20,045 nucleotides of DNA from a virus. Location: positions 1 to 20,045 of IMG/VR virus record IMGVR_UViG_3300023242_000669, one strand, 5' to 3'. Of this stretch, positions 2-19,208 are shown piece by piece; position 1 is the stretch's first letter, and the number at the start of each line of letters is the position of its first letter. The position numbers and the translations under genes were made by a program. The notes under the pieces are model-generated. The model made no database searches. It was not told where the DNA came from and saw nothing but the letters and a program-made list of their open reading frames with translations.

Positions 2-115
2 ACATGGTGCATGCGCCTAGTGCGCACCGTCTGTCCTAAAGGTCCAGTGAGCAAATCGCTTGTGGACATCGTAGATCAGTTCATTCAACACCTGGAGAGC
101 TCAAATGAAGATTAA
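2..115 (+). CDS. C-terminal end of an upstream gene (partial)
   Basis: This frame is open from the left edge to a TAA at 113-115, while the other two forward frames close within the first 40 bases. The visible tail ends VDIVDQFIQHLESSNED, a plausible amphipathic helix with an acidic end. It overlaps the start of the next gene by 11 bases, matching the tight packing seen throughout the window. The start lies outside the window, no family is recognisable from about 37 residues, and a chance open frame remains possible. Confidence 0.45.
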   Translation, partial: TWCMRLVRTVCPKGPVSKSLVDIVDQFIQHLESSNED

Positions 116-1283
116 CCTGATGAATAGCCAGCTTGTGGCCAACCTTCTCACCGAGAACTTCGGTGTGGGACCGGCAATCCTGCAAAAACTCCAGCGCCAT
201 GCATCCAAGGCCTCAATCCCCTTGGGTGTCTGGCTGGTGCAGCAAGCCATCGTGGTTGCTTCCTCTCCTTTTGAGCATGGGGATGAGGATGATGAGCGAT
301 TCAAGCCATCACCCCAAGGGGCTGAGGCTAACACCCCAGCTCCCTCCAGCAGCATGCACGACGACGATGGTGCTGATCATCCTGCTTCCTATCCTTATGG
401 GGATGAGGATCAGGATCAGGATGAGGATGAGGATGTGGCTCATTCAACGCAGGCGCCTGACGTCTTGTTTGAGCTGCCCCATACATCCGTGGAATATGAC
501 CCGTCTGTCATCCAAATGGACATTGAGTTTGAGGCGCTTTGCCTGCCTACCAGGCCTTACAACGCGTTGGTGCGCGCAGGCTACGCCAGCGTCGAACGGA
601 TTGTGGCAGCTGGTCCTAAGTTCATCTCCAAGTTGATGGGCATCGGTCCAGGTTCGATGCAAGAGATCACTGACGCCATGGCAAAGATTGGGATCAGCTT
701 TGCCCTGAATCAGGCTGGGCAGCAAGAGGAGCCAGAGGCCACAGTTGATGAGGCCACGGTAGATGCGCCCACAGCTTCGTGGCTCACAGTGGTAGATCGT
801 ACCGAGCGCATGTCTAGCCAGGACATCATGCTGACGGACTTCACTGGTGAGCTGGCCCCTGTGGTCCTGCTCGCGCATGAGGGTGTGCTGCGAGGCCTCT
901 GGCCAAACGCGCAGTTCGTCATGGACACCTACTTTGAGGATGAGAAGCCCTCCTTGAGTGAGATGGGCAGCTTCTTCACCTACATTAAGAGGCGCCTTGA
1001 GTCGATCCTGCTCGTGTCACCCAGCCAGCTTGACGAGGCTGTGAAGATGGCCCGCATCATTGGTCAAAACGAGATGTGGGCCCTCACCACTGGCGCTCAG
1101 ATGCTGTGTGCCAAGGACATGAACTACATGACCTACCGTGAGGCTTCGACGTATCTGCGGGACCTGGCTGACTATGTGGAGACCTCAGGCGATGACGTGT
1201 CACAGGACGTCTTTGATAGCATCGCAGCCGAAGACCGTGAGCGCTCTGAGGATGAGCTTGACGATGACTTCTTGGAGGATTGA
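105..1283 (+). CDS. RNA polymerase alphaCTD-like domain protein with acidic linker
   Basis: This 392-aa protein starts at an ATG preceded by GGAGAG (94-99). Residues 1-50 form a short helical region. Residues 55-115 are a low-complexity linker with acidic runs such as DEDQDQDEDED. Residues 140-199 resemble the helix-hairpin-helix C-terminal domain of bacterial RNA polymerase alpha subunits. Aligned by eye to E. coli RpoA, R150 matches R265, N153 matches N268, G181 matches G296, S184 matches S299 and E187 matches E302. These are residues known to contact DNA at UP elements or nearby; K298 is replaced by Gly. Residues 225-392 are unrecognised and end in an acidic tail (DELDDDFLED). No alpha N-terminal assembly domain is visible. 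The fused polymerase gene downstream makes a transcription role attractive, for example tethering polymerase to promoter DNA, but that is inferred. A generic helix-hairpin-helix protein is the main alternative. Confidence 0.7.
   Translation: MKINLMNSQLVANLLTENFGVGPAILQKLQRHASKASIPLGVWLVQQAIVVASSPFEHGDEDDERFKPSPQGAEANTPAPSSSMHDDDGADHPASYPYGDEDQDQDEDEDVAHSTQAPDVLFELPHTSVEYDPSVIQMDIEFEALCLPTRPYNALVRAGYASVERIVAAGPKFISKLMGIGPGSMQEITDAMAKIGISFALNQAGQQEEPEATVDEATVDAPTASWLTVVDRTERMSSQDIMLTDFTGELAPVVLLAHEGVLRGLWPNAQFVMDTYFEDEKPSLSEMGSFFTYIKRRLESILLVSPSQLDEAVKMARIIGQNEMWALTTGAQMLCAKDMNYMTYREASTYLRDLADYVETSGDDVSQDVFDSIAAEDRERSEDELDDDFLED
396..436 (+). repeat. GATGAG/GATCAG imperfect hexamer tract
   Basis: This short run of GAT-GAG and GAT-CAG units encodes alternating Asp/Glu/Gln residues in the linker of the alphaCTD-like protein. 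Such tracts change length by slippage, so the linker may vary between relatives. Confidence 0.6.
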
Positions 1284-5877: not shown

Positions 5878-6176
5878 ACCATAAAGACCTCGTATTGTCA
5901 GTACGATCGCGCTGCGATGGTGTGACAAAGGAGCAAGTCCGCGAGGTGTTGACACATCTAGTGGACGTCGTGACCGAGAGCCTGTGCAAGGGCGATACTG
6001 TGCGACTTGAGGGTCTTGGGACGCTCGATGTTGTTTGGTTAGAAGAGAAGTGCGTCAAGACAGGCATTGATGGCGAGAGCCACAACCTGCCCCGTCGCCG
6101 CGTCCCCAAGTTTCGTTTCTCACGTGTGTTGCGCAAGTCCGTTTCGAGCAAGGAGGTTGATCATGGCGATGGATAA
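5874..6176 (+). CDS. HU/IHF-family DNA-binding protein
   Basis: This 100-aa basic protein follows the HU/IHF fold in order. Two N-terminal helices run across residues 1-40 (KDLVLSVRS, TKEQVREVLTHLVDVV). The signature turn LEGLGTLDV matches the family's GFGTF region. A beta arm follows, and the C-terminal VPKFRFSRVLRKSV matches the usual PxFKxGKxLKxxV end. These proteins bend DNA and act in packaging, recombination or transcription. The usual Arg-Asn-Pro at the arm tip, whose proline intercalates in DNA, is not visible; the region reads VKTGIDGES instead. The gene starts with GTG in a 4-base overlap with the nuclease gene and ends 14 bases inside the next gene. Confidence 0.87.
   Translation: MNHKDLVLSVRSRCDGVTKEQVREVLTHLVDVVTESLCKGDTVRLEGLGTLDVVWLEEKCVKTGIDGESHNLPRRRVPKFRFSRVLRKSVSSKEVDHGDG
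6150..6156 (+). promoter_or_regulatory. Strong Shine-Dalgarno AAGGAGG setting the start at 6163
   Basis: A near-perfect AAGGAGG lies 6 bases before the ATG at 6163, inside the end of the HU-like gene. It excludes the longer frame that opens at 6067 and indicates a bacterial-type ribosome in the host. Confidence 0.8.
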
Positions 6177-6378
6177 GTACGGCGTCTATACGGGCACCAG
6201 CCCAACAAACCTGGATAAGCAGGCTCAGGCCGAGATCTGTCCAAGCTGCGGACACGCAGTGGAGTACTATGGCAGTGTCAAGATGTGCGCCAAGTGCGGA
6301 TCTAAGCCCTTTGAGTCCCGCACAGGCATCCGAAAAGAAGCAGACCTTTCATACCTTCGCAAGGGAGACAAGCCATGA
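6163..6378 (+). CDS. Small zinc-ribbon protein
   Basis: This 71-aa protein has two Cys pairs, CPSC at residues 26-29 and CAKC at 42-45, spaced as in a rubredoxin-like zinc ribbon. The flanks are short and charged. It has no visible catalytic domain and is more likely an adaptor or nucleic-acid-binding protein than an enzyme. The LDKQA motif at residues 17-21 recurs in other proteins of the window. It overlaps the HU-like gene by 14 bases and the next gene by 4 (ATGA), so these genes are probably co-translated. Confidence 0.75.
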   Translation: MAMDKYGVYTGTSPTNLDKQAQAEICPSCGHAVEYYGSVKMCAKCGSKPFESRTGIRKEADLSYLRKGDKP

Positions 6379-7439
6379 TCGATATCAAGGTGCGCCGTAC
6401 GCCAGGTCGTGTCATCGATCAGCTTGATGACCCGGGCTTCGGCTTTGATAAGATGGCATCTGAGTGGCCCGAGGAGATGGAGAATCCCCTCGGACGTCAG
6501 CCAGCAGGCCATGCCTACGCAGCTATGGTCGATGACGGCCTGATGAAGCGCTCAGCTTACCCCATCAACTCCCCTGAGGAGGCGTTGGCAAGCTCCATGT
6601 ACTTCGTGATGTACGGAGCTGCGCTCATGGTTGACGACCAGGAGGCGCTGAAGAAGGTGGCGTTTGAGCTGCGCGAAGCGCGCCTTGCCCACGGCGTTGT
6701 GCTCGACTCGGGCTTCGGCGAGTTCGTAAAGCGCGCGATGCGCGTGGATCCGCCCCCGATGGAGGTCTACGCTGACTCAGTGGGTCACCTGCCCGTGACT
6801 ACGCCTGACCAGCTCATGAAGAGCGCTGAGCTGTTCAAGCGTTACGAGGACCGTTGGGATCCCTCAGATGCTGCGGCCATCGCATCGCGCATGCACAAGG
6901 TGGCAGCTCACCTCGGTGTTGGCTTTGAGCACGACCTGCCCCCACATGAGGAGTGGGATCTGGCAGAATCGTTCTTCAGCCAGATGGACAAGCGCGCGCG
7001 CTTGGTGTCAAGCTTCGAGGACTACGACGACAAGGATGTCTACCTTTGGGGTTGTCAGACCCTCAAGGAGGCAGCTGTCGAGTCAATGCAAAACGAGTCG
7101 AAATCCTGGCTCGTTGACGTCATCGAAGCTGTACAAGAGCTCGATAAAAGTGCAGGTTTGGAGCACCGGTGGAACCGAGATTTCCTGGATCCAGCACGTA
7201 GCGTGTTAGTCAACCGACCAGAGCCGAGCGCCATGGACTCCATTCGGGAGCAGACGCATCAGGGCACCACGAGGATCTTTGACAAGTCCCTTCAGGTCGA
7301 CGGGTGGGACAAGATGGCCAGCGACAAGGCCTACCCCCAGGACCTGATCGATTACGTCAAGGAGAGCCCGCAGGAGCGCCTGCCGCAGCTGCCCCCGTAT
7401 ATCAGGGAGGGCATGGAGAAGTATCTCGGCCTAACCTGA
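6375..7439 (+). CDS. Unrecognised 354-aa acidic protein with repeated DKxA motifs
   Basis: No family is recognised. The protein is soluble-looking, mostly helical and rich in acidic residues, with no signal peptide or membrane segment. Short motifs of the form hydrophobic-Asp-Lys-x-Ala recur: FDKMAS at residues 24-29, MDKRAR near 207, LDKSAG near 264 and WDKMAS at 311-316. Similar motifs occur in neighbouring proteins. Its ATG overlaps the zinc-ribbon gene's stop codon (ATGA). The position two genes before a portal-like gene suggests a virion or head-assembly component, which is inference only. Confidence 0.7.
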   Translation: MIDIKVRRTPGRVIDQLDDPGFGFDKMASEWPEEMENPLGRQPAGHAYAAMVDDGLMKRSAYPINSPEEALASSMYFVMYGAALMVDDQEALKKVAFELREARLAHGVVLDSGFGEFVKRAMRVDPPPMEVYADSVGHLPVTTPDQLMKSAELFKRYEDRWDPSDAAAIASRMHKVAAHLGVGFEHDLPPHEEWDLAESFFSQMDKRARLVSSFEDYDDKDVYLWGCQTLKEAAVESMQNESKSWLVDVIEAVQELDKSAGLEHRWNRDFLDPARSVLVNRPEPSAMDSIREQTHQGTTRIFDKSLQVDGWDKMASDKAYPQDLIDYVKESPQERLPQLPPYIREGMEKYLGLT

Positions 7440-7449
7440 GAGATGGAAC

Positions 7450-8757
7450 ATGAAGAAGCTCGACGGAACCAACGTGCCTGATGAGAGCAGTCTAGACCTC
7501 ACTTCTGGTGCAATGCCCTTGGTACAGGGCGTTGACTATGGTTTCGGTGACCTGAAGACGAAGGCTGAGTTCGGCAAGAGCTATGAGCTCATGCAGATGC
7601 TGTCTAAGGATCCATTCTCCGAACCCCGGAACGCGAATCCTGAGGTCATCAGCTTTCAAGAGCTGCAAGAGGGCCGATACATTGAGAAGCAAGCTCACAC
7701 CCCGTTGAATGGGCGTGAGCTTGCTAGCGAGATGAGCCCTGGCAACCCGCTGGGCTTGCGCAGCCCTTCGCAGCCCTACCATCCATCTCAGAGCGTTGGG
7801 GGGAGTGTCCAGCGCGGCACTTCTGACCCTGTCGCAGAAGCAGCAGCAGCAACGGGTGAGCTCAGCAAGCCTGGTTTGCAGCAGATGAAGCTCACCCAGT
7901 CCGATCAGGAGGCTCACTTCCGTGAGGCTGTGGTCAGCTCCAGGGAGCGCTCCATCCAGACCAGTGGCGGTGGAGAGATCGGCGATACTGAGGTCACATC
8001 TAAGCGACGCTTCTCAAAGCTTGCCAACATGTGGGATGGCCTCTCCAACGAAGAGGATCCTCCCGCTGAGGTGATTGAGGATGAGGTGGAGCCCGTCCCT
8101 GCGATCCCCGATGAGATCTTAAAGGCGCTGGAAGGGGTTGGTTCCAAGCCACAGGTCGTTGCACTCGCGATGGATGAGCTGCTCGGTGAGGATTGGGTCA
8201 CATGGGAGTTTGAGACGATCATGACGCTCATGGTCGACAGGCTTGAGCTCAGCGTGTCGCCTGAGCTGATCAACAAGATCATGGCTATCAAGACGGTCAC
8301 AATGAGCACCTCGTTTTGGACACGTGTCCAAGCGTTTGAGGGTGTGTGCCGCGCCTTCACAGAGCGCCCGGTGGATTCGACTACGCTCATGGGCTGCCCC
8401 ATGTACGCCATCGCAGCAGCTGTCGCAGTGGTGGAGCGCTTCTTCCAGAACTACGATGCCAAGTTCTCAGACGATGTCTCCGTGTACGTGGCTGCCAATG
8501 CCATTCAGAGCGGCTACATGTCCCTCCCCCACGAGCTGTCGTTCGCGCGTGACCAGTTCATGATTGAGTTCACGAAGCGACTTGGGCGCAGTAGTGGTGC
8601 AGACCTCCCCAACCAAGCGTTGGTGGCTAAAACGCTAAGGGAGTTGGCCTCCGGCGTGGATATGGAACTTGACTCTCTGGCTGAACAAGACAAGGTACAG
8701 ATCATTCGCGAGATGCGCACGATGCTGGCGGTCCAGAACATTTTAACTTGGGAGTGA
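7450..8757 (+). CDS. Unrecognised 435-aa protein upstream of the portal-like gene
   Basis: No family is recognised. Residues 1-185 look disordered and are Ser/Pro/Gly/Gln-rich. FSKLAN at 188-193 is followed by an acidic stretch (EEDPPAEVIEDEVEPVP). The C-terminal half, about residues 215-435, looks like a compact all-helical domain with a hydrophobic segment around CPMYAIAAAVAVVERFF. The ATG at 7450 begins 11 bases after the preceding stop codon, and the portal-like gene begins 4 bases after this one ends. The two-part architecture and position would suit a scaffold, internal head or neck protein, but nothing in the sequence proves it. Confidence 0.7.
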   Translation: MKKLDGTNVPDESSLDLTSGAMPLVQGVDYGFGDLKTKAEFGKSYELMQMLSKDPFSEPRNANPEVISFQELQEGRYIEKQAHTPLNGRELASEMSPGNPLGLRSPSQPYHPSQSVGGSVQRGTSDPVAEAAAATGELSKPGLQQMKLTQSDQEAHFREAVVSSRERSIQTSGGGEIGDTEVTSKRRFSKLANMWDGLSNEEDPPAEVIEDEVEPVPAIPDEILKALEGVGSKPQVVALAMDELLGEDWVTWEFETIMTLMVDRLELSVSPELINKIMAIKTVTMSTSFWTRVQAFEGVCRAFTERPVDSTTLMGCPMYAIAAAVAVVERFFQNYDAKFSDDVSVYVAANAIQSGYMSLPHELSFARDQFMIEFTKRLGRSSGADLPNQALVAKTLRELASGVDMELDSLAEQDKVQIIREMRTMLAVQNILTWE

Positions 8758-8760
8758 TTC

Positions 8761-11055
8761 ATGTCGCTTGGTCAAAGCCTGAGCATGAGGCGGGACAGCT
8801 ATCCTGATCCTTTCATGGATTTTGCATCCCTGACTCTCCCGAAGAGCAGGGAGAAGCTGTACGAGCTGTGTCGAATCGTGGCGATGACTCAGCCTCAGAT
8901 CGCCGCCATCGTGCGCAAGCTGGCCAAGTACACGATCACGTCAGTGATCTTCACCTCCAAAGAGGTGGCGAACGATGAAGCGCTACAGAAGCGCTGGGGC
9001 GAGTACTTCGATAACGAGGCCAACATCCTGGAGCTTGCCGAGGGCGTAGGTCTCGACTTCTTCACGTATGGCAACGCCTACGTTCTAAGCCACCGCCCCT
9101 TCCAGCGCGTATACATCTGCAACCACTGCAAAGAGAGCCACCCCGCCGAATCTCGCAAGCTGCTATACAACTTCAGTGGCGAGAGTGTGGTTGGCAAGTG
9201 TCCTGCTTGTAAGCGCAGCTCAAAGTTTGAGGCCAAGGACTTAGAGATTCGCTCAATGAAGGGCTTCAGCATGGTTCGCCTGAACCCTGCCGACGTCCAA
9301 GTGAAGAAGAACTCGCTCACGGGCAAGCGCCGCTATTACTGCTCCCCGCCTGGCGATCTCAAGTCAGCGGTGCGAGGCACAAAGATAGACCGGGAGCTGA
9401 TTGACGAGACCCCTTGGCAGTTTGTCATGGCAGCTCTCAAGAGGAAGCGCATTGAGTTCAAAGATGGCACGTTGCTGCATCTGATGGAGCCCTCGCCAGC
9501 TGGTGTGGATGATGAGGTTGGTCTGCCTCGCATCCTGCCAGCGCTCAAGCTGGTATACCTCGACCAAGTCTACAAGAAGAGCGATGAGGCGGCAGCCCTT
9601 GAGCGCACCTTGCCGCTGCGCTTTGTCTTCCCACAGCCCTCTTCTGAGTCACCTCTTGATAAGATGCCCCTGGCGCACTTCTCAAGGTTCCTCGCCATGT
9701 CCCTGAGGCGTTGGCGCCACGACAAGAACGCTGTCGTGCCGAGCAGCTTTCCTGTGGGTGTGAGTGAGCTGGGCGGCGACGCGAACACCTACAACTCTGC
9801 CCCAATGCGCAACCTGACGCGCTCAGAGATCATTGGCGCCATGGCAGTGCCCGAGGGCTTCCTGTCTGACGGCATGACATGGTCCGGCGGCTCTGTGCAG
9901 CTGCGCATGCTAGAGAATAGCTTGATCGGCATGATGCGCGCGCTCAACAGGCTGTGCACCTATGTCGAGACGGAGATTCAAGCAGTCTCGCAGCTGCCTG
10001 CGTGCGGCGCGAAGATGAAGAATTTTCGCCAGCTGGATGACATTCAGCAGCTCGGCATGAAGATGAGCTTGGCCCAGCAGCGCGTTATCAGCTGGAAAAC
10101 AGTATGTGATGCGATGGACCTCAACTTTGACGAAGAGCAGTCGAAGATCAGCCAAGAAGATCGCAGCCTTCAAGACAACGCCGCTGAGCGCGCTCGTGCT
10201 GAGCTGCGCAATCAGATGGAGGCGCTCAAGACCCAAGCGCTCACTGCCGGCTACCAGCAGGGCTACGGTCAGATCGACCAAGACATGCAGCAGAGCACTG
10301 CCGCAGCTCAGGCTGCACTGGTTGGCTCTGAGAAGTACGTTGATGCTCGCGCTCAGCAGGATCAGCAGCAGGAGCAGCAGGGACAGCAGGAGTCGCAGAA
10401 GCAACAGCAGGATGCGGAGCTTCAGCAAGAGCATCAGAAGGCTCAGCTCCAGTCACTCAAGAGCCAGGGCGCGAAGTCTGAGGCTCAAGCATTGCAGGCC
10501 AAGGCAACAGCGAAGCGTGAGATCTCACAGTCTGGCAAGCTGGATGAGCATGGTGAGTTCTATCGTCAGAACAGCACTGAGCGCAAGGACGTGAAGCTGG
10601 AGGGCTACGTCAAGAAGTTGGTTGAGGACGTCGTCAAGATGGACCAAGAGGGAGCTGTCAAGTACATGGGCAAACTGTGGCAGGCCACGCCCGATGTGGC
10701 GCAGCTTGTCGCATCTGAGCTGGAGCGTCGCAAGAGCAAGGCCAAAGGCTCAGCTGAGCCCATCCTGCCACAGGAGAACCAGCAGAGTCCCAGTGGTGGG
10801 GGCGGCGAAGATCAGTCACAGCTTGACGCTGAGATCGCGCAGATGCGTGCCAATGCCAAGTCACCCGAAGCGCTGGCAAACCGCATCAAGCTGATGGAGC
10901 CTGCGCGTCGTATGGCTATCATCTTCAGACTGGTCAACACGGATCCTTCTCTAGGTCGCGAGATCCTAATGAAGGTGACCCCTCAGTCAGTAGCTCCGAA
11001 TAGCACCAGAGCCTCTTCCAAGCCGCCAAACCCTGTGATGCCACCAAAGGTCTGA
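8761..11055 (+). CDS. Portal-like protein with zinc-ribbon insertion and Gln-rich C-terminal extension
   Basis: This 764-aa protein has a portal-like first 480 residues. A helical start (TQPQIAAIVRKLAKYTI) leads to FFTYGNAYVL, then GFSMVRLNPADVQV and LLHLMEPSPAG. A long helical stretch follows, and then EIIGAMAVPEGFL with late helices carrying many Arg and Glu. Portal rings form the DNA channel and the motor docking site at the head vertex. C120, C123, C147 and C150 form a CxxC-x23-CxxC zinc-ribbon-like insertion. Residues 470-600 are a predicted coiled coil containing a Gln-rich tract, followed by a helical C-terminal region. The portal call rests on architecture and phrase-level resemblance, not on a single diagnostic motif. 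Another head or neck protein is the alternative. Confidence 0.6.
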   Translation: MSLGQSLSMRRDSYPDPFMDFASLTLPKSREKLYELCRIVAMTQPQIAAIVRKLAKYTITSVIFTSKEVANDEALQKRWGEYFDNEANILELAEGVGLDFFTYGNAYVLSHRPFQRVYICNHCKESHPAESRKLLYNFSGESVVGKCPACKRSSKFEAKDLEIRSMKGFSMVRLNPADVQVKKNSLTGKRRYYCSPPGDLKSAVRGTKIDRELIDETPWQFVMAALKRKRIEFKDGTLLHLMEPSPAGVDDEVGLPRILPALKLVYLDQVYKKSDEAAALERTLPLRFVFPQPSSESPLDKMPLAHFSRFLAMSLRRWRHDKNAVVPSSFPVGVSELGGDANTYNSAPMRNLTRSEIIGAMAVPEGFLSDGMTWSGGSVQLRMLENSLIGMMRALNRLCTYVETEIQAVSQLPACGAKMKNFRQLDDIQQLGMKMSLAQQRVISWKTVCDAMDLNFDEEQSKISQEDRSLQDNAAERARAELRNQMEALKTQALTAGYQQGYGQIDQDMQQSTAAAQAALVGSEKYVDARAQQDQQQEQQGQQESQKQQQDAELQQEHQKAQLQSLKSQGAKSEAQALQAKATAKREISQSGKLDEHGEFYRQNSTERKDVKLEGYVKKLVEDVVKMDQEGAVKYMGKLWQATPDVAQLVASELERRKSKAKGSAEPILPQENQQSPSGGGGEDQSQLDAEIAQMRANAKSPEALANRIKLMEPARRMAIIFRLVNTDPSLGREILMKVTPQSVAPNSTRASSKPPNPVMPPKV
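10354..10439 (+). repeat. CAG-rich tract encoding polyglutamine-like coiled coil
   Basis: Repeated CAG codons interrupted by GAG, GAT and GGA encode runs such as QQDQQQEQQGQQ from residue 532 of the portal-like protein. The tract is likely to be length-variable by slippage. Confidence 0.65.
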
Positions 11056-11056
11056 G

Positions 11057-11530
11057 ATGAGAATTGTCTACCCAGCGGGTTCCTTAGGCAACACTACCCC
11101 CATGGTGGTTCAGCCTGGGGATAGTGAAGCTGCCCCTGAATTGCTGACTCAGACTTGGATCAAGCCCTTGCTTGACCCTGAGTACGTCGCTCAGAAGGCG
11201 ATGGAGAAGGAGCTGTCAAGGGAGCTGGGTGCACAGTTTGTGGTTGGCAAGTCTGGCGACAAGCTGTTCTTGAATCGAAGCCAGATGTTTCGCCTCACTG
11301 AAGATCCTGCCACGCACGTGCCTTACCAAGAGCTCTTGGACAGGCTTGTGCACGAGATGGTCACCAAGGATGGTGACGTGGCGACGTTTGATCGAGATGC
11401 ATCCATCGTCCGCGGTTGGAGTTCCAACGGCGATGCCATGATTTTGGTGGAGTGGCTTGACTACACTGAACTTGGCAAGAAGATGAGAGATCAGCAGGCC
11501 AAGCTGGACACAGTTGATGCGGAGTTTTGA
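11057..11530 (+). CDS. Unrecognised 157-aa protein downstream of the portal-like gene
   Basis: No family is recognised. It is a mixed alpha/beta, acidic protein without membrane segments. It begins one base after the portal-like gene's stop codon, so it is almost certainly translated from the same message. A helical middle (YVAQKAMEKELSRELGAQF) is followed by strand-rich sequence (DAMILVEWLDY). Head-completion or adaptor proteins often sit here in tailed phages, but that is only a positional guess. Confidence 0.65.
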   Translation: MRIVYPAGSLGNTTPMVVQPGDSEAAPELLTQTWIKPLLDPEYVAQKAMEKELSRELGAQFVVGKSGDKLFLNRSQMFRLTEDPATHVPYQELLDRLVHEMVTKDGDVATFDRDASIVRGWSSNGDAMILVEWLDYTELGKKMRDQQAKLDTVDAEF

Positions 11531-11532
11531 TC

Positions 11533-11955
11533 ATGGGCGTATTGTTCAAGCTAGCCTCGCGCGGGTTCCATGCCGCAGCTAAGAAGCTAGACCGAGGCGC
11601 AGGCATACAGATCAAGGGCATGAACCACAAGCGCGTGCTTGTCTCAAAGCGCACCATGTCTGAGCAGCAGGCCCTCAACCTGGGGTTTTCTCCCAGTCTG
11701 ATCTCCATTCCTGAGCCAGGACAGGCACGCTTCGTGTCGCTGCGCCACAAGGATGGCTACCACGTGCATGATCATGGTGACGACTGGATCATGCACAAGG
11801 ATGAACACTCACCAGATTGGCGCAAGCCCATATCTACTGCGAAGCACCTCATTGGCGAGGGAGCTCCAGGCATGATCGACTATATGCGCTGGCGCGATGG
11901 TGCACTGCTTAAGCACATGAAGCCCAAGCAACCTGGGCGACGCAGCACTACTTAA
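11533..11955 (+). CDS. Unrecognised 140-aa basic, His-rich protein
   Basis: No family is recognised. The chosen ATG at 11533 follows GCGGAG (11519-11524) with 8 bases of spacing; an in-frame TTG at 11527 is a weaker alternative. The basic N-terminus (FKLASRGFHAAAKKL) is followed by a His/Asp cluster (HVHDHGDDWIMHKDEH), which could bind metal. It starts 2 bases after the previous stop codon and is separated from the polymerase gene by 54 bases. FKLAS near the start resembles the DKxA-type motifs of nearby proteins. Confidence 0.65.
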   Translation: MGVLFKLASRGFHAAAKKLDRGAGIQIKGMNHKRVLVSKRTMSEQQALNLGFSPSLISIPEPGQARFVSLRHKDGYHVHDHGDDWIMHKDEHSPDWRKPISTAKHLIGEGAPGMIDYMRWRDGALLKHMKPKQPGRRSTT

Positions 11956-12000
11956 TCACCTGAAGCCTAAGCGCCTTGTGCGACACTGCCTGCTGCCACT

Positions 12001-12007
12001 GGAGAAG
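12001..12007 (+). promoter_or_regulatory. Ribosome-binding site of the fused RNA polymerase gene
   Basis: GGAGAAG lies just upstream of the ATG at 12010 and supports that start. The 54-base gap before the gene shows no convincing sigma70-type promoter, so transcription probably continues from upstream or uses an unknown phage promoter. Confidence 0.6.
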
Positions 12008-12009
12008 TA

Positions 12010-15000
12010 ATGTCAATGCGAACGGGTGCACCTTTCGAGGCGCATAAGGACGTGCTCAAGAACATTGATAAGTACCTTCAAGAGGTCCTCAATGTGACCG
12101 TGGGGGATCGCAAGCTGGTGCTTGAGCGCGTCGATCTGCCAAGCCCAGAGCCTAGCGAGGACTACAGGGCACAGTCAGCTGCAAAGTCATCAGGCCAGTC
12201 TCTCTCCCGCCCTGTTTATGCTCATCTGGTGCTCAAGCACGGCTCCAAGTCTGTCGACCGCAAGAAGATGCTTATACTCAGCGTCCCTGCGGTGACGAGG
12301 TATGGCACCTACTTGGTCAATGGGGGTGAGTATGCCTTCCCCACTCAGAAGCGGCTGCTCCCTGGCGTATATACGTCTAAGAACGACGACGGTTCGGTGA
12401 CGAGCATCGTCAACACCGCTAAGGGTTTGAATTATAAGGTGGAGCTTTCGGAGGACGGTGTCCTTGCGCTCCTTGTGGCAGGGCGCAAGCCTGGTGAGTT
12501 TTCCACGGTGAACCTCCACGCGCTGCTCCTTGGATTTGGCGTGAGTCGAGAGGATATGCAGCGCGCCTGGACCAAGGATGCCTACGCGACAATCGCAGGG
12601 GCGCGCGGCGCAAGTGGCGCGCGTGAGGCGATGCAGAAGCTCTACGACAAGATGCTCTACCACACAGATGAGCCCGCCAAGAGCGACTCCTTGCCGGACC
12701 TCGCTCAATGGGTGTTGGTTTACCTTGGAGACAAGGAGGCGTTTGACGCCGACAACATGGCGATCCTCCTTGGCAAGCCACAGTCGAAGATCAGCCCGCA
12801 GATGTTCGTTGATGTCGTCGCGAAGATGATTGAAGTGGCGAAGGGCAACAAGGATTCGGACGCGAAGGAGTCGCTGCTACACTCCTCCTTTGAGGATGTG
12901 GGCGACTTCGTGATGGAGCGCCTCAACCGACGCGAGTATCGAGAGAAGATCAAGCGCACCATTGAGCATGGTCTGGGTCGCTACACCAAGGTCGATGAGA
13001 TCGTCTACAAGGACCTGTTCCAGGCGCCACTCATCTCGACGTTCACTCAGACCAGTCTCGCGCGCATGCCCAAACAGAACAACCCGATGGATATATCATC
13101 CACGTTCAGCGAGGTCACGCTGCGCGGTGAGGGTGGTATTTCTATGGATCATGCGGTCACCAAGGATGTGAGAGCAGTTGATCCCTCTCATTTTTTGTTC
13201 CTCGACCCGATCCACACGCCCGAAGGCGGTAACGTGGGCACGACGCTCCACATGGCATCAGGAGCGCGCAAGAGCGGGAAGACGCTTGTTGCCAAACTGC
13301 GAGATGTGAAGACGGGCAAGGTCGTTGAGCTCAACCCACGTCAGATCCATGCAGCTCACGTGGCGGCGCCTGAGTCTTACCTTGAAGGGAAGATCAAGGG
13401 CAGTCGCATCGATGGCATGGTTGAGGTCATGCACCAGGGGGACATGAAGAAAGTAAAGACTCAGATGGTGCAGTACGTCATGCTTAGTGCTGCGAGCATG
13501 CTGGATCTTAACAGCCTAGCTGTGCCATTCATGAGCAACAACAACGGCACCCGTGGCATGACTGCTTCCAAGATGCAGGCCCAAGCTAAGCCACTGAAGT
13601 ATCGCGAAGCGCCGCTCATCCGCTCAGCCGTAGGAGAGAAGGGCGAAGAGACTATCGAAGGCATGTTTGCCTCTAACTTCCTTCCCAAGAGCCCTGTCGA
13701 CGGAACCATCTCAAAGGTCTCCAAGGAAGAAGTGGCAATCAAGGACGGGGCAGGCAAGATTCATCTAGTTGGCTTCCCGAAGGACTACTGGCTTAACGAG
13801 GGCAACTTCGTTGACACTGAGCTCAGTGTTAAGGTCGGCGACAAGGTGAAGGCAGGCCAGATCCTTGGTGACTCGACATCCACCAAGGATGGTGCTCTCG
13901 CGCTGGGTGTGAACCTGCGCGTCGCCTACGTGGCATACAAGGGGTACAACCACGAAGATGGGATTGTGATCTCCGAGACAGCTGCCAAGAAGCTGACAAG
14001 CCTCCACGCTCACCAGTCAACGGTGCCTGTGGGTGCTGACGAGGTCCAGAACGTCAAGAAGTGGCAAGCCTACTTCCCAGTTCTGTATCTCCCCGAGCAG
14101 CTGAGCAATCTGGATGATGAAGGGGTGATCAAGGAGGGCGCGCGCGTCAATGCGGGTGATCCAATGGTGGTGAAGATGCGGCGCAACCAAGAAGACGTTT
14201 TGAGTCGCAAGCTCAATAACGTCAGCCGCTTGATGGCCACCGACTATCGCGACACATCCTATGCCTGGGAGAAGGACAACGGGGGCATTGTTGCTGAGGT
14301 GCGCAAGCGTCGTGGCAGTGTCTTCATCGTCGTGAAGACCGAGGAAGAAGCTCGCGAGGGGGATAAGGCCTGCGGCAGGTATGGCAACAAGGGGGTGATC
14401 ACCTCTATTTTGGCTGACGATCAGATGCCGAAGGACGAGGAGGGGCGACCTATGGAGATCCTGCTCAACCCATCAGGTGTCCCAGGGCGAATGAATCTCG
14501 GCCAAGTGATGGAGGTGACCGCATCAAACATCGCAGAGAAGACGGGCAAGCCCTATATCGCGCGCCCCTTTGGTCAGGATAACGAGGCAACGCTCCAGAA
14601 GGAGCTCAAGCAGCACAAGCTCAAGGACCACGGCAACTTGATCGACCCCGAGGAGGGGGATGTCATTGAGGGCGTGCTCATTGGCAAAGAGTATATCCTG
14701 AAGCTTGAGCAGCAGGTTGAGAAGAAGATGTCTGCCCGCAGCGGCGGCGCAGGTGAGGCATATGGCATGTCCGGACAGCCAAGCGGTTCCGGCGGCGATG
14801 GTGGCCGCGCTGTGGGGCTTGGTGAGATCTACACACTGCTCGCGCACGGCGCCAATGCTAACCTGAGAGACATGTTCACTTGGAAGGGTGACGCGCAGCC
14901 GGAGGCATGGCGCGCCATGGAGAATGGCTATCCGATCCCCCCAGTCGACGTTCCTCACAGCTCTCAGCGCCTAGTGGCGATGATGCGAGGCATGGGGGTT

Positions 15001-18000
15001 GACCTCGCTGAGAACGGCTCAATGGTGCGCATGACGCCTTTCCTAGACCGTGACGTCAAGGCCCTGTCTGCTGGGGAGATCAAGACTCCAGGCACGCTGC
15101 GCGCCAAAGACCTCAAGGAGGAGAATGGCGGGCTGTTCGACATCAAGACCACAGGTGGTCGTGACGGTGATAAGTGGTCCCACATCAAGCTCGCGCGCCC
15201 AATGCCACACCCTACGTTCGAGAAGTCGATCCTGGACGTGACGGGCATCAAGGACTCACAGTTCCAAGACATCATGGCGGGCGTCTTGGCAGTGAAAGAT
15301 GGCAAGTTGGTCCCCCCGGAGACCAAGGGAGCCAAGACAGGTGGTGAGGCCATCAGTGAGCTGCTCGCAGGCGTCAACGTCAAGAGTGAGATCAAGCGCC
15401 GCATGGAACTTGGCCCAACCCTCAAGGGCTCAGAGCTCAACTCGAATCACCGATGTCTACGTGTACTGAAAAATTTCAGTGACAACGGAATCCAGCTCAA
15501 GGAGATGGTGGTAGCCACTGTGCCTGTGCTGCCTCCAAAGTTCCGACCTGCCACAGATATGCCTGATGGTTCATTATCCATCGCGGACGTTAACGAGCAC
15601 TACAAGTCTTTGCTGATCGCGAACAACCAGCTCAAGGAGCTCGCTTTGAGGCCTGGTCTTGGCGATCAGCGCAGGAAGCTAGAGGTTGCTCTCTACACGG
15701 GCATGCGTGGCACGATGGGCTTTGACAAAGGCCTCGTGCAAACGCCTAACGTGGTTGGCTTGGCAGCTACGATCGCTGGCGCGCAGCCCAAGCACGGCGT
15801 TTATCTGGCCAAGACACTGCGCCGCAAACAGGACGCATCTGGCACGGGTGTTATCGCACCTGATCCCAAGCTCAGCATGGATGAGGCGGGCATTCCTGAG
15901 GAGATGGCATGGAAGATCTTCCAAACGCCAGTGATCACCCACCTCAAGAACAACGGCTTTGATCGTGCAGCTGCGCTCGACCAGATCGGGGAGCGCACCC
16001 CATTTGCGCGCCGCGCGCTTGAGCTATCAATGGAGCGTCACCCCGTCATCATCAACCGAGCCCCCACTCTCCACCGTGGCGGTGTCCAAGCCTTTCAGCC
16101 GAAGCTTGTGCCAGGCAGGTCTGTAAAGCTGCCAGTTGAGGTGTTGACAGCATTCAATGCCGATTTTGATGGCGACACTGTGGGCGTTCACGCAGTGCTC
16201 ACGCCAGACGCTATTGAGGAAGCGCATCAGATGATGCCATCCAAGAACCTCTATGCAGCTGGGCGTGGCCGCGAGGCGCTCAACCCGCAGCTGAGCCAGG
16301 AGTACATCGCTGGTCTGTATCGGGTCACGCGCATGGGTAAGTCGACTGCCAAGTCCTTCATGAACCCTGACGAGGCCATCAGGGCGCTGAAGGCGCGCGC
16401 TGTGAAGCCGGATGACGTGGTGTCAATCAAGTCTCTGCGCACGCGCACCACGCCAGGTCTTTGCTTGGCGATGGAGGCTGTGCCACCTGATATGCGCGAC
16501 TACAAGACTGTGCTTGGCAAGAAGCAGGTTGAACAGCTGCTCATGAACATTGAGAAGAAGCACGGCACGAAAGCATTCCTCAAAGCGATCACCGAGTTCA
16601 AGCACGTGGGGCGCAAGTACGCCTACCTGACGGGGCTGTCAGTGCTGTTGAGCGATCTCAAGCCTATGTCTGGGGCCCGGGACCAGATCTATATGCAGGC
16701 TGAGCGCCAAGTGGCACATGTGCGCTCAAACCCTCGCCTCAAGCCTGAGGAAGCCCATATCCAGATCATCAAGATCTACGCCGACGCTGACGCCAAGGTG
16801 CTTGGGCGCGTGGGCAACGACATGGGCACGAACTCCACAGGCCAGCCTAACAACCTGTCTGACATGCTCGTCTCTGGCGCGCGCGGCAACCCCCACCAGA
16901 TCAAGCAAATGGTCGGGGCTGTGGGCTTGATGATGGATCACCGTAACCGGACTATCCAGGAGCCCGTGCGTGGCAACTACGCTGAGGGGCTTGGCACCTA
17001 CGACTACTGGAAGCACACCTACAGCCAGCGCAAGGGCATGATCGACAAGTCACAGTCTGTCATTGGACCTGGTGCCCTATCGAAGGAGCTCACCAACACG
17101 GCCTCCATCTATCCCATCACTTCGCTCGACTGCAACACCAAGCGCGGCCGCCTGGAGAATGTGGACAAGCACCTCATGCAACGTCTTCTGGCTCGCCAAG
17201 TGCTGACGTTCAAATCAGGCACCATTGTGGACTCTGAGGTGGTCGACAAGCTCTCGCGCTCAGGCATGAAGCAAGTTCTCGTGCGCTCACCGCTCACATG
17301 TGAACAAGCAGAGGGTGTGTGCTCGAAGTGCTACGGCCAGGATGAGTTTGGTAAGCTCCCTTCGATTGGAGTCAACGTCGGCATTCGCGAGGTGCAGGCG
17401 ATGACCGAGCGCGCGGTCCAGCTGCCGATGAAAAGCTTCCACTCAGGTGGTGTCGCTTCAGCTGATGCAGGCCTATCGGATGCCTTCTCGCAAGCTCTAC
17501 AGGTCCTTCGCATGCCCGATCAGATCAAGGCTAAAGCCACACTTGCCACGCTCAATGGACGCGTGGACCAGATTCGGCCCACTGGCTTTGGCAGCTTCAT
17601 CATCATGATCGGAGGCAAAGAGCATCAAGTGGGTCAGGGGCGCAAGATCCTTGTGCGCTTGGGTGAGCAAGTGACTAAGGGCCAGCAGATTACATCAGGC
17701 ATGATCAAGGCTCAAGAGCAGCTGGCGCTCACCAACTTGTCCACAGTACAAGGTCAGGTGCGAGACGACTTGGAGAGCACCTTCAGCAGCGCGGGTGTCA
17801 AGCTCCACAAGCGCACCTACGAGCTGATGACCAAGGGGATCACTGAGCAGGTGCGCGTCACGGATCCAGGTGACAGCCGAGATTTTGTATCTGGCGACTA
17901 CACCACCCTGGCCAAGGTGCAAGCTTGGAACTCTCGCAACGCGGGTAAGCGCCCCATCAAATATACCGTCGAACTCTCTGGCAGTCTTATGGCTCCTCAT

Positions 18001-18168
18001 CGCAGCGAAGATTTTGCCAGGCGGATGGCATTGGGTAGAATTAGCGGAACTTTAGTAGAGGGCGTGGCCATGGGCTACACCTCAGATCGTGACAAGTCCC
18101 CCTTCTCTCGCCTGTCACTTGGGCCGGGGACAGCACTGTCTCGAAACGTGCCCAAAATGAAGAAGTAG
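12010..18168 (+). CDS. rpoBC: Single-chain multisubunit-type RNA polymerase, beta fused to beta-prime
   Basis: One 2052-aa frame carries both large subunits. Beta spans residues 1 to about 1000. It has the VPAVTRYGTYLVNGGEY lobe motif, a rifampicin-pocket region (QNNP at 356-359) and HTPEGGNVG. It also has GYNHEDGIVISE (E649, D650), catalytic lysines K786 and K794 in GDKACGRYGNKG, and the C-terminal GEIYTLLAHGA. Beta-prime follows from about residue 1005 (MTPFLDRDVKALSAGEIKTP). It has VPVLPPKFRP, NRAPTLHR (1349-1356) and the metal-binding NADFDGD, with D1385, D1387 and D1389. Downstream are a bridge-helix region, a zinc site (C1708, C1764, C1771, C1774) and the trigger loop MKSFHSGG with H1811. 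The N-terminal beta-prime zinc domain is absent. Bacterial fusions, as in Helicobacter, are near 2900 aa, so this enzyme is compact. All catalytic elements look intact. Its position after a portal-like gene suggests late or virion use, which is inferred. Confidence 0.95.
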   Translation: MSMRTGAPFEAHKDVLKNIDKYLQEVLNVTVGDRKLVLERVDLPSPEPSEDYRAQSAAKSSGQSLSRPVYAHLVLKHGSKSVDRKKMLILSVPAVTRYGTYLVNGGEYAFPTQKRLLPGVYTSKNDDGSVTSIVNTAKGLNYKVELSEDGVLALLVAGRKPGEFSTVNLHALLLGFGVSREDMQRAWTKDAYATIAGARGASGAREAMQKLYDKMLYHTDEPAKSDSLPDLAQWVLVYLGDKEAFDADNMAILLGKPQSKISPQMFVDVVAKMIEVAKGNKDSDAKESLLHSSFEDVGDFVMERLNRREYREKIKRTIEHGLGRYTKVDEIVYKDLFQAPLISTFTQTSLARMPKQNNPMDISSTFSEVTLRGEGGISMDHAVTKDVRAVDPSHFLFLDPIHTPEGGNVGTTLHMASGARKSGKTLVAKLRDVKTGKVVELNPRQIHAAHVAAPESYLEGKIKGSRIDGMVEVMHQGDMKKVKTQMVQYVMLSAASMLDLNSLAVPFMSNNNGTRGMTASKMQAQAKPLKYREAPLIRSAVGEKGEETIEGMFASNFLPKSPVDGTISKVSKEEVAIKDGAGKIHLVGFPKDYWLNEGNFVDTELSVKVGDKVKAGQILGDSTSTKDGALALGVNLRVAYVAYKGYNHEDGIVISETAAKKLTSLHAHQSTVPVGADEVQNVKKWQAYFPVLYLPEQLSNLDDEGVIKEGARVNAGDPMVVKMRRNQEDVLSRKLNNVSRLMATDYRDTSYAWEKDNGGIVAEVRKRRGSVFIVVKTEEEAREGDKACGRYGNKGVITSILADDQMPKDEEGRPMEILLNPSGVPGRMNLGQVMEVTASNIAEKTGKPYIARPFGQDNEATLQKELKQHKLKDHGNLIDPEEGDVIEGVLIGKEYILKLEQQVEKKMSARSGGAGEAYGMSGQPSGSGGDGGRAVGLGEIYTLLAHGANANLRDMFTWKGDAQPEAWRAMENGYPIPPVDVPHSSQRLVAMMRGMGVDLAENGSMVRMTPFLDRDVKALSAGEIKTPGTLRAKDLKEENGGLFDIKTTGGRDGDKWSHIKLARPMPHPTFEKSILDVTGIKDSQFQDIMAGVLAVKDGKLVPPETKGAKTGGEAISELLAGVNVKSEIKRRMELGPTLKGSELNSNHRCLRVLKNFSDNGIQLKEMVVATVPVLPPKFRPATDMPDGSLSIADVNEHYKSLLIANNQLKELALRPGLGDQRRKLEVALYTGMRGTMGFDKGLVQTPNVVGLAATIAGAQPKHGVYLAKTLRRKQDASGTGVIAPDPKLSMDEAGIPEEMAWKIFQTPVITHLKNNGFDRAAALDQIGERTPFARRALELSMERHPVIINRAPTLHRGGVQAFQPKLVPGRSVKLPVEVLTAFNADFDGDTVGVHAVLTPDAIEEAHQMMPSKNLYAAGRGREALNPQLSQEYIAGLYRVTRMGKSTAKSFMNPDEAIRALKARAVKPDDVVSIKSLRTRTTPGLCLAMEAVPPDMRDYKTVLGKKQVEQLLMNIEKKHGTKAFLKAITEFKHVGRKYAYLTGLSVLLSDLKPMSGARDQIYMQAERQVAHVRSNPRLKPEEAHIQIIKIYADADAKVLGRVGNDMGTNSTGQPNNLSDMLVSGARGNPHQIKQMVGAVGLMMDHRNRTIQEPVRGNYAEGLGTYDYWKHTYSQRKGMIDKSQSVIGPGALSKELTNTASIYPITSLDCNTKRGRLENVDKHLMQRLLARQVLTFKSGTIVDSEVVDKLSRSGMKQVLVRSPLTCEQAEGVCSKCYGQDEFGKLPSIGVNVGIREVQAMTERAVQLPMKSFHSGGVASADAGLSDAFSQALQVLRMPDQIKAKATLATLNGRVDQIRPTGFGSFIIMIGGKEHQVGQGRKILVRLGEQVTKGQQITSGMIKAQEQLALTNLSTVQGQVRDDLESTFSSAGVKLHKRTYELMTKGITEQVRVTDPGDSRDFVSGDYTTLAKVQAWNSRNAGKRPIKYTVELSGSLMAPHRSEDFARRMALGRISGTLVEGVAMGYTSDRDKSPFSRLSLGPGTALSRNVPKMKK

Positions 18169-18178
18169 CCCCTACTTC
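18162..18178 (+). terminator. Perfect inverted repeat over the polymerase stop codon
   Basis: GAAGTAG-CCC-CTACTTC forms a perfect 7-bp stem with a 3-base loop and includes the TAG stop codon of the polymerase gene. No T-run follows, so intrinsic termination would be weak. It could be a pause or mRNA 3'-end protection element. Confidence 0.35.
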
Positions 18179-18209
18179 ACACCCTCCTAACAGAACGATC
18201 CCGAGGTGT
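18179..18209 (+). promoter_or_regulatory. Hairpin covering the ribosome-binding site of the first SYLD gene
   Basis: ACACC(C)TC (18179-18186) can pair with GAGGTGT (18203-18209) through 7 bp with one bulged C. The 3' arm contains the likely Shine-Dalgarno sequence of the GTG start at 18213. This could damp translation, but the stem is short and may be chance. Confidence 0.3.
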
Positions 18210-18212
18210 AGC

Positions 18213-19208
18213 GTGACGATTTCTTATCTTGATGCTCTTGCTGGTGACGACTTCGAGTACGAGTACGAGGACGAGGTGAGCTATCTCGACCTGTTGTCCG
18301 ACGGCATGGACAAGGATGCTGATTTCATTGTTGGTCCTGGCGGTGAAACCACGTTCCGTGGCCTGCCTGCTGTGATTTCGAGGGGTCGCTCCTCGGAGAT
18401 GACTAAGTTTAAGCAAGGCGGTGGTGCACTTGCTCGTTCGTCCGGTCAGCTTCTTCATGGGAGTCAGCGCTCCAACAAGGCTCTTCTCGGTGCCGCTCAG
18501 GAGAGGCTGCTTCTCGCTGACTCGGGCATGTACAAAAAGAAGCAGAACCCAAGGGCACGCATGGATAGTGGCACGCGCTTATCTTCGCGCAGCACTGCTC
18601 GCCCACCTAAGCGTGTTGAGCCTACCATTGAGGTAGCGAAGTCGAAGGGAGGGGCAGGTCTAGGGCTTGGAGCTCTTGGTGCTCTCGGTCTGGCAGGTGC
18701 GGGCGCCAAGGGTCTCCAGATGCGCCGTGCAGCTCAAGCACGCTCCTTGCGCAACAAGAAGATCGCCATTGGCGCAGGCGCTGGAGCTGCCGGTCTGGCA
18801 GGCCTCGCAGCCTTGGCATCAAGGCGTCGTGGCAAGCGCGATGATGATGAGGGGCAGAGCAAGACGGCCTCCTATCTCGACGTTCTCTCTGATGGCATGG
18901 ATAAGTATGCTAAGGTCGATCGACTGCAAAGGTCCATGGATCTCGACTTTATTAAGGACCTGAGAGCATCAGGCCCATCAACCCCTCACCGAAAGAAGAA
19001 CTACACTGGCCTAGGGCTTGGAGCTCTCGGCGCTCTCGGTGCAGCCGGTGCGGGCGCCAAGGGTGTCCAGATGCGCCGTGCAGCTCAAGCACGCTCCTTG
19101 CGCAACAAGAAGATCGCCATTGGCGCAGGCGCGGGCGCTGCCGGACTTGCGGGGCTTGCAGCCTTGGCATCAAGCCGTCGCAGCAAGAGCGATAACGACG
19201 AGGGTTAG
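18213..19208 (+). CDS. Modular SYLD-motif / glycine-zipper hairpin protein, copy 1
   Basis: This 331-aa protein matches no family I recognise but is clearly modular. SYLD motifs occur at residue 4, near residue 23 (SYLDLLSDGMDKDA) and at residue 220 (SYLDVLSDGMDKYAK). Two hairpin modules, near residues 150-210 and 267-325, each contain two Gly/Ala-rich hydrophobic stretches around a strongly basic loop. Patterns such as GALGALG and IGAGAGAAGLAGLAALA resemble glycine zippers that let helices pack in membranes. The basic loop (MRRAAQARSLRNKK) would suit membrane surface or nucleic acid binding. The start is GTG at 18213 with GAGGTG upstream. The gene ends at an amber codon aligned with a glutamine codon in its paralogs. 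Possible roles include a membrane-active, ejected or internal virion protein; none is shown. Confidence 0.75.
   Translation: MTISYLDALAGDDFEYEYEDEVSYLDLLSDGMDKDADFIVGPGGETTFRGLPAVISRGRSSEMTKFKQGGGALARSSGQLLHGSQRSNKALLGAAQERLLLADSGMYKKKQNPRARMDSGTRLSSRSTARPPKRVEPTIEVAKSKGGAGLGLGALGALGLAGAGAKGLQMRRAAQARSLRNKKIAIGAGAGAAGLAGLAALASRRRGKRDDDEGQSKTASYLDVLSDGMDKYAKVDRLQRSMDLDFIKDLRASGPSTPHRKKNYTGLGLGALGALGAAGAGAKGVQMRRAAQARSLRNKKIAIGAGAGAAGLAGLAALASSRRSKSDNDEG
18660..18923 (+). repeat. 264-base repeat, copy R1
   Basis: This repeat encodes the glycine-zipper hairpin, the DDDEG linker and the SYLDVLSDGMDKYAK segment. It aligns without gaps to copy R3. The last 99 bases (18825-18923) are identical to 19947-20045. 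Confidence 0.9.

What the first reader, a model, noticed from the sequence alone, without database searches (positions are those of the whole stretch)
12010..18168. A compact one-piece beta/beta-prime RNA polymerase in a phage-like genome
One uninterrupted 2052-aa frame contains the ordered landmarks of RpoB and then RpoC, with catalytic D1385/D1387/D1389, K786/K794 and trigger-loop H1811 all present. Known phiKZ-like phage polymerases are split over several genes, and bacterial fusions such as that of Helicobacter are much longer. A short natural fusion with intact catalysis next to a portal-like gene looks unusual. Divergent phage multisubunit polymerases have been reported from metagenomes, so the lineage may be known while this architecture may not.
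Basis: partly seen in the sequence, partly recalled or inferred. Interest (0 to 1): 0.85.

Follow-up and report, generated by a model that had tools for sequence, protein, structure and literature searches.

The report
One-piece RNA polymerase of tailed phages
This phage fragment carries an intact RNA-copying enzyme in which the two big halves of the bacterial machine are fused into one protein, and the same fusion turns out to be standard in a large, little-studied group of tailed phages that usually carry their own promoter-recognition (sigma-like) factor as well.

Summary
It is not an assembly artefact. Of 84 related loci examined, 75 carry the polymerase as one full-length ORF (2010-2244 aa, or about 2550 aa with an insert), and a 76th does if TGA is read as an amino acid. 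The beta/beta' junction has the same length in 44 of 46 aligned sequences. A maximum-likelihood tree puts these phages in one clade (100/100) outside all sampled Bacteria (100/99). That fits the "mReC" lineage of Weinheimer and Aylward 2020, whose paper does not describe the fusion. New here: the fusion is the rule in this clade; the beta' N-terminal zinc domain is missing in 46 of 46; key residues by which bacterial cores hold sigma are lost; no alpha N-terminal domain gene was found in 23 records; and a divergent sigma-like protein occurs in 20 of 25 contigs of at least 100 kb and in both isolated relatives checked (Salmonella phage Arash, Vibrio phage D69). Best reading: a single-chain phage core that needs no alpha scaffold and starts transcription with a phage sigma. 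Activity is inferred, not shown. New variant of a known kind.

The parts
12010..18168 (+). Single-chain beta-beta' RNA polymerase, 2052 aa
   Evidence: Open frame, Pfam/NCBIfam rpoB and rpoC domains in order, 84 related loci, AF2 models matching RpoB and RpoC
12001..12004 (+). Shine-Dalgarno GGAG, 5 nt before the ATG
   Evidence: Read from sequence
12010..15012 (+). beta-homologous part (residues 1 to about 1001): protrusion, reduced lobe, DPBB-B, flap, C-terminal anchor
   Evidence: Alignment with E. coli RpoB; model residues 345-1480 match RpoB chains, Z up to 35.8
15007..15054 (+). Near-linkerless beta/beta' junction (about residues 1000-1015); E. coli beta' residues 1 to about 29 have no clear counterpart. 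The stretch between fixed columns is 26 aa in 44 of 46 clade sequences and 27 aa in 2
15055..18165 (+). beta'-homologous part (residues about 1016-2052): clamp without N-terminal zinc ribbon, DPBB-A, bridge helix, trigger loop without SI3, C-terminal clamp
   Evidence: model residues 1000-2052 match RpoC, Z up to 34.7 over 911 residues
14365..14391 (+). Active-site lysines K786 (14365-14367) and K794 (14389-14391)
   Evidence: = E. coli beta K1065/K1073, invariant 46/46
16156..16176 (+). Catalytic NADFDGD motif, residues 1383-1389
   Evidence: = E. coli beta' D460/462/464
16996..17103 (+). Bridge helix, one 36-residue helix (residues 1663-1698)
   Evidence: AF2 model secondary structure and alignment
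17377..17514 (+). Trigger-loop region (residues about 1790-1835) with H1811
   Evidence: H1811 = E. coli beta' H936, invariant 46/46 phages
8761..11055 (+). Portal protein homologue, conserved upstream of the polymerase
   Evidence: Homologue in 64 of 84 loci, including Arash at the gene annotated as portal (gp204)
7450..8757 (+). Conserved structural-module ORF just before the portal, function unknown
   Evidence: Homologues in 43 loci
6375..7439 (+). Conserved structural-module ORF, function unknown
   Evidence: Homologues in 40 loci
105..1283 (+). 392-aa protein with an RNAP alpha-CTD-like domain (516-683); possible accessory DNA-binding factor, link to the polymerase not shown
   Evidence: Pfam RNA_pol_A_CTD 1.1e-7 for one genome, over the cut-off; same domain in the close relatives L007 (2.0e-13) and L009 (5.3e-12)

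Best explanation
The ORF encodes an active DNA-dependent RNA polymerase core of a tailed phage, made as one chain in which the beta C-terminus runs almost without linker into beta'. The fusion holds the two catalytic halves together, so the core needs no alpha dimer for assembly. Promoters are recognised not with host sigma70 in the canonical way but with a phage-encoded divergent sigma-like protein, lying elsewhere in the genome and outside this 20-kb fragment. The enzyme transcribes phage genes. Because its gene sits in the head/portal module it is made late and might be packaged. Shown by sequence: the fusion, intact catalytic residues, overall fold, clade membership, loss of the beta' zinc domain and of sigma-contact residues, no alpha-NTD gene found in relatives, and a sigma-like gene in most large relatives. 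Inferred: activity, independence from host alpha and sigma, pairing with that sigma, timing and packaging.
For: Domains and catalytic residues. AF2 models: residues 345-1480, pLDDT 82.6; residues 1000-2052, pLDDT 84.7; they match solved RpoB (Z 35.8, 617 aligned, 3.4 A) and RpoC (Z 34.7, 911 aligned, 3.1 A). 75 of 84 loci full-length one ORF. Junction 26 aa in 44 of 46; zinc domain absent 46/46; beta' R275 and E295 and flap-tip F906 and G907, each conserved in 16/16 bacteria, occur in 0/46 phage sequences. dN 0.21-0.47 against dS 1.2-3.1 or saturated. No alpha-NTD (PF01193) in 23 records while 13 of 14 control genomes ring. Sigma-like family in 20 of 25 viral contigs of at least 100 kb and in Arash (3.9e-40) and D69 (6.9e-36); PHROG 351 'RNA polymerase sigma factor' 9.1e-21; the Arash depositors call gp10 a sigma factor. 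Portal linkage.
Against: No biochemical data. The window itself holds no sigma-like gene, so pairing rests on relatives; its five nearest relatives are fragments, and only the 124-kb one (L007) has it. Distant alpha or omega proteins could escape the profiles, and omega was not searched. Five contigs of at least 100 kb lack the sigma-like hit. The flap and clamp helices are still present in altered form, so some host sigma contact cannot be excluded. Late timing and packaging rest on gene position only.
Confidence: 0.72

Rival explanations
1. A single-chain phage core that depends on host alpha, omega or sigma and works as a host-like holoenzyme; the fusion is only a convenience, as in Helicobacter.
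For: The core fold is fully bacterial-like; bacterial fusions are known (NCBIfam PRK09603 and PRK14844 match); clamp helices and flap are still present.
Against: beta' R275 and E295 on the clamp helices and F906/G907 of the flap tip, conserved in all 16 bacteria, occur in none of 46 phage sequences; dedicated sigma-like genes are common in the clade.
Confidence: 0.17
2. A virion RNA polymerase: the chain is packaged and injected to transcribe early genes, as in phiKZ vRNAP or crAss-like gp66.
For: The gene lies in the structural module after the portal in 64 of 84 loci; in Arash the beta'C gene and a helicase run directly into structural genes and the capsid gene. P23-45 has a virion RNAP fused to its tape measure protein, and vRNAP fusions are reported in crAss-like phages (PMC10770324).
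Against: No proteomic evidence. In Arash many products are annotated 'structural protein' but gp206 and gp216 (the RNAP) are not. Compatible with the best explanation rather than exclusive of it.
Confidence: 0.3
3. An assembly error or frameshift joining rpoB and rpoC, or an ordinary bacterial rpoBC on a misbinned contig.
For: None found.
Against: Same fusion with the same junction length in dozens of contigs; tree places it outside Bacteria at 100/99; portal synteny.
Confidence: 0.01
4. A decayed or repurposed RNAP-like protein without polymerase activity.
For: No assay; one relative (L002) reads DYDGN in place of DxDGD next to an intein-like insert.
Against: Catalytic lysines and the first two aspartates invariant 46/46, third aspartate 45/46, trigger-loop histidine 46/46; dN/dS well below 1.
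Confidence: 0.06

Closest known systems
mReC RNA polymerase (Weinheimer and Aylward 2020, PMC7481178)
   Same: Deep-branching tailed-phage beta and beta' outside Bacteria, NADxDGD motif, IMG/VR contigs up to more than 200 kb with phage hallmark genes
   Different: The paper speaks of beta and beta' subunits and mentions fusion only for crAssphage; fusion, zinc-domain loss, alpha absence and sigma companion are not described in the parts read. Named mReC sequences could not be fetched for a direct comparison
RNAP1 of rep_vMAG_21 (PMC10159854)
   Same: Text counts one viral gene for RNAP 'beta and beta prime' and places it at the base of the mReC clade, probably the same architecture
   Different: Not remarked upon as a fusion; sequence not compared here
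Salmonella phage Arash gp206 + gp216 and Vibrio phage D69
   Same: About 29-31% identical, portal gene upstream, same 26-aa beta/beta' junction, no beta' zinc domain, sigma-like gene
   Different: beta' is cut after the catalytic DPBB (window residue about 1473) into a separate gene of about 606 aa
Chimalliviridae (phiKZ, AR9) vRNAP and nvRNAP
   Same: Phage RNAPs of the cellular two-barrel type, no alpha, sigma or omega homologues by the literature (PMC7598289, PMC13282480)
   Different: Split into four or five polypeptides; the window is one chain
Helicobacter and Wolbachia fused RpoBC
   Same: Natural beta-beta' fusion, same order
   Different: 2890 and 2839 aa models, ordinary bacterial enzymes by established knowledge; the window is 2052 aa and outside the bacterial clade
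crAss-like phi14:2 gp66, P23-45 gp64/gp96, YonO
   Same: One-chain two-barrel phage RNAPs
   Different: Reported as lacking recognisable sequence similarity to COG0085/COG0086 (crAss) or as a different major clade (PMC10770324); the window aligns with RpoB/RpoC over nearly its whole length

Membership tests
mReC (multi-subunit RNAP-encoding Caudovirales) | RNAP branches as one phage clade outside cellular Bacteria | tested here: met
   Careful tree, LG+C20 PMSF: phage clade 100/100, Bacteria 100/99, archaeal outgroup
mReC (multi-subunit RNAP-encoding Caudovirales) | Both beta and beta' matches of at least 80 bits and at least 800 aa | tested here: met
   NCBIfam beta 348 bits, beta' 455 bits, 2052 aa; the paper used COG0085/COG0086 models, NCBIfam used as proxy
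mReC (multi-subunit RNAP-encoding Caudovirales) | NADxDGD motif in beta' | tested here: met
   NADFDGD at residues 1383-1389; 39 of 46 aligned clade members have it
mReC (multi-subunit RNAP-encoding Caudovirales) | Tailed-phage hallmark genes on the contig | tested here: met
   Portal homologue 8761-11055, linked to the RNAP in 64 of 84 loci
mReC (multi-subunit RNAP-encoding Caudovirales) | Major capsid protein of PF07068 (and shared TerL family) | tested here: inconclusive
   PF07068 found in none of 23 records, but it rang in no control either; the window is a fragment; TerL not tested
mReC (multi-subunit RNAP-encoding Caudovirales) | Groups with the named mReC sequences | not testable with these tools
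Chimalliviridae RNAP | beta and beta' split over four or more genes | tested here: not met
   One ORF
Bacterial RpoBC fusion (Helicobacter/Wolbachia type) | Lies inside the bacterial clade and keeps the beta' N-terminal zinc domain | tested here: not met
   Outside Bacteria (no Helicobacter or Wolbachia sequence in the tree); the four zinc-domain cysteines absent
crAss-like / YonO one-chain RNAPs | No recognisable sequence similarity to cellular beta/beta' beyond the catalytic region | tested here: not met
   Aligns with RpoB and RpoC over nearly full length
Active RNA polymerase | Template-directed RNA synthesis | not testable with these tools
   Needs a biochemical assay

The most novel reading that the evidence does not exclude
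A whole clade of tailed phages carries a minimal transcription machine of two polypeptides, a single-chain beta-beta' core without alpha and without the beta' zinc domain plus a dedicated divergent sigma, that works independently of the host's alpha, omega and sigma70, with a single ancient fusion that predates the split of beta' in isolates such as Arash.
Probability: 0.45. Interest if true: 0.75.

Novelty: new variant of a known kind. Interest (0 to 1): 0.56.

Why it matters
Bacterial RNA polymerase assembles on an alpha dimer and starts with sigma docked on the beta' clamp and beta flap. A natural clade that fuses the two catalytic subunits, seems to lack alpha, and has changed the sigma-docking residues while carrying its own sigma would show what the minimum needed for bacterial-type transcription is. 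It also gives a marker (fusion with a junction of constant length, zinc-domain loss) for a phage lineage previously known mainly from a tree, and points to a cultivable relative, Salmonella phage Arash, in which host-independence and rifampicin sensitivity can be tested directly. The split after the catalytic barrel in Arash, D69 and L003 lies after DPBB-A, where the literature places the beta' split of phiKZ-like and cyanobacterial enzymes (PMC7598289), which bears on how those arose.

Tried and rejected
Assembly join or misbinned bacterial rpoBC: rejected. Profile scan with an alignment that included the separate beta'C proteins failed for lack of conserved stretches; dropping them worked. 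PF07068 capsid test uninformative because no control rang. Promoter and terminator scan of 10900-18500 at chance level; no Rfam hit and no tRNA. VIA-align rows for the model of residues 345-1480 list only RpoB chains and cover model residues 1 to about 660, so that model does not by itself show how the two barrels are placed together; the beta' half is covered by the second model. Placement of the split Arash/D69 branch relative to the one-piece members is unresolved (55/89), so which state is ancestral for the beta' C-terminal part is left open. Literature searches for an earlier description of the fusion in this lineage found none beyond the implicit case in PMC10159854; most subscription papers and preprints are not held, so this is weak evidence of absence. 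Rifampicin: E. coli beta D516, H526 and S531 are K, T and T here, which suggests but does not show resistance.
Full report
Check of the observation. The ORF 12010-18168 is open for 2052 aa with a good Shine-Dalgarno. Pfam finds the RpoB domains Rpb2_3 and Rpb2_6 and then Rpb1_1 to Rpb1_5 in order; NCBIfam gives rpoB 348 bits and rpoC 455 bits. G000 is a 20,045-base IMG/VR virus fragment.

Not an artefact. A first scan found two relatives and a profile scan 390, of which 80 were kept. With Arash and D69, 84 related loci were examined. 75 hold one ORF spanning the whole polymerase (2010-2244 aa, plus two of about 2550 aa with an insert); five are cut by contig ends; L053 needs TGA read as an amino acid (2024 aa with code 4); and three (L003, Vibrio phage D69, Salmonella phage Arash) stop just after the catalytic barrel of beta'. 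In Arash and D69 the rest of beta' is a separate gene. The stretch between two fixed columns flanking the junction is 26 residues in 44 of 46 sequences, 27 in two. dN is 0.21-0.47 where dS is 1.2-3.1 or saturated, so the fused frame is under purifying selection.

Anatomy. beta homology ends near residue 1001 and beta' homology resumes near 1016, with the first roughly 29 residues of E. coli beta' without a clear counterpart. The large lineage-specific inserts of E. coli are absent. The beta' N-terminal zinc ribbon (four cysteines in 16/16 bacteria) is deleted in 46/46 phage sequences; the second zinc site is kept in 43-44 of 46. Of the residues on the beta' clamp helices and flap tip that contact sigma by established knowledge, R275, E295, F906 and G907 are each conserved in 16/16 bacteria and found in 0/46 phage sequences, and R271 in 1/46. 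Two-gene phage RNAPs (Cobetia phage Carin-5, Rhizobium phage RHph_TM30, Vibrio phage 1.031.O) still have the N-terminal CXXC, so zinc-domain loss goes with the fused clade, and apparently also with L108, its 2318-aa sister.

Structure. AF2 models of residues 345-1480 (pLDDT 82.6, pTM 0.68) and 1000-2052 (pLDDT 84.7, pTM 0.73) match solved RpoB (Z 35.8, 617 residues, 3.4 A) and RpoC (Z 34.7, 911 residues, 3.1 A).

Relationships. The careful tree (44 taxa, 1709 columns, LG+C20 PMSF, two archaeal sequences as outgroup) gives phages 100/100 and Bacteria, including three CPR lineages, 100/99; the window groups with L006-L010 at 100/100; L108 is sister to the phage clade at 100/100. Where the split Arash/D69 pair attaches is unresolved at 55/89 (earlier quick trees). 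This agrees with the deep mReC branch of PMC7481178. That paper's text mentions fusion only for crAssphage. PMC10159854 counts one viral gene for RNAP 'beta and beta prime' at the base of mReC, so a fused member has probably been in print without comment.

Surroundings. A portal homologue lies upstream of the polymerase in 64 of 84 loci, including Arash, where the depositors call it portal; two further ORFs (6375-7439, 7450-8757) are conserved with it in 40 and 43 loci. The enzyme is thus part of the structural module across the clade.

Partners. No alpha-NTD (PF01193) in 23 records although 13 of 14 control genomes ring. Sigma70 region 2 rings in some. A 234-aa protein of the nearest large relative (L007) with weak region 2, 3 and 4 matches defines a family found, over two searches, in 20 of 25 viral contigs of at least 100 kb (one weak), in Arash (3.9e-40) and in D69 (6.9e-36), but in no shorter contig. 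PHROG calls it an RNA polymerase sigma factor at 9.1e-21, and the Arash depositors annotate gp10 as a sigma factor. The window, only 20 kb, has none. In the window's own subclade (window, L007, L009) a separate protein carries an alpha-CTD-like domain; its role is unknown.

Mechanism. Shown: the fusion, the intact catalytic set, the fold, clade, synteny, and the missing or changed parts. Inferred: that fusion replaces alpha as the assembly scaffold, that the phage sigma-like protein opens promoters, that host sigma70 is not used in the usual way, and that the enzyme is made late and may be packaged.

Verdict. A new variant of a known kind: the lineage is known; the one-piece architecture as its rule and the accompanying losses and sigma-like partner appear undescribed in the literature that could be searched.

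Noticed in passing
window 105-1283: 392-aa protein with an RNAP alpha-CTD-like domain (516-683) in a phage, also in relatives L007 (321 aa) and L009 (340 aa); no alpha N-terminal domain.
   Followed up: partly
window 1401-4565 and 4549-5196: The phage carries a full bacterial-type DNA polymerase III alpha (DnaE, PHP domain) followed by a DnaQ-like 3'-5' exonuclease; L008 has both too.
   Followed up: no
window 6067-6378: Small zinc-ribbon protein (start perhaps downstream), conserved in the same place in L007-L010.
   Followed up: no
window 5874-6176: HU-like DNA-binding protein gene.
   Followed up: no
window 18213-19208: Downstream ORF holds two near-identical repeats (GLGLGALGALG...KKIAIGAGAGAAGLAGLAALAS), probably membrane-associated; no homologue in the 88 loci scanned.
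   Followed up: no
L053 9956-16027: 205-kb phage contig whose polymerase has three in-frame TGA codons: open for 2024 aa with TGA read as an amino acid.
   Followed up: partly
L002 9935-17527 and L082 1190-8902: Polymerase ORFs of 2530-2571 aa with large inserts; in L002 an intein-like insert sits in the catalytic DxDGD motif, which reads DYDGN before it.
   Followed up: partly
L003 14230-15627: The ORF that follows the broken beta' of L003 has a weak intein-splicing match (0.0043), so the break may be an inserted mobile element.
   Followed up: partly
L124-L133: Separate kind: complete single ORFs of about 1,020-1,135 aa (L124 is cut by the locus end) with both catalytic barrels in Armatimonadota, Poribacteria, Hydrogenedentota, Anaerolineae and Aquidulcis MAGs, matching only window residues about 610-1430 at most.
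   Followed up: no
L121, L122, L123, L108: Further one-chain beta-beta' ORFs (1801, 1748, at least 1473 and 2318 aa) on contigs binned as Deltaproteobacteria, Propionibacteriaceae, Desulfobacteraceae and Bacillus; L121 and L123 keep a CXXC where the beta' zinc domain would be.
   Followed up: partly
L105, L106: Desulfovibrio genome contigs with a 1486/1502-aa beta-beta'N fusion ending at the same split site as Arash; a beta'C-like ORF of 793 aa lies on another contig of the L106 genome.
   Followed up: partly
L181 (G025:C2:30000-42000): A 211-kb contig binned with a Woesearchaeota archaeon carries a second, bacterial-type beta' and beta pair beside the archaeal set on another contig.
   Followed up: no
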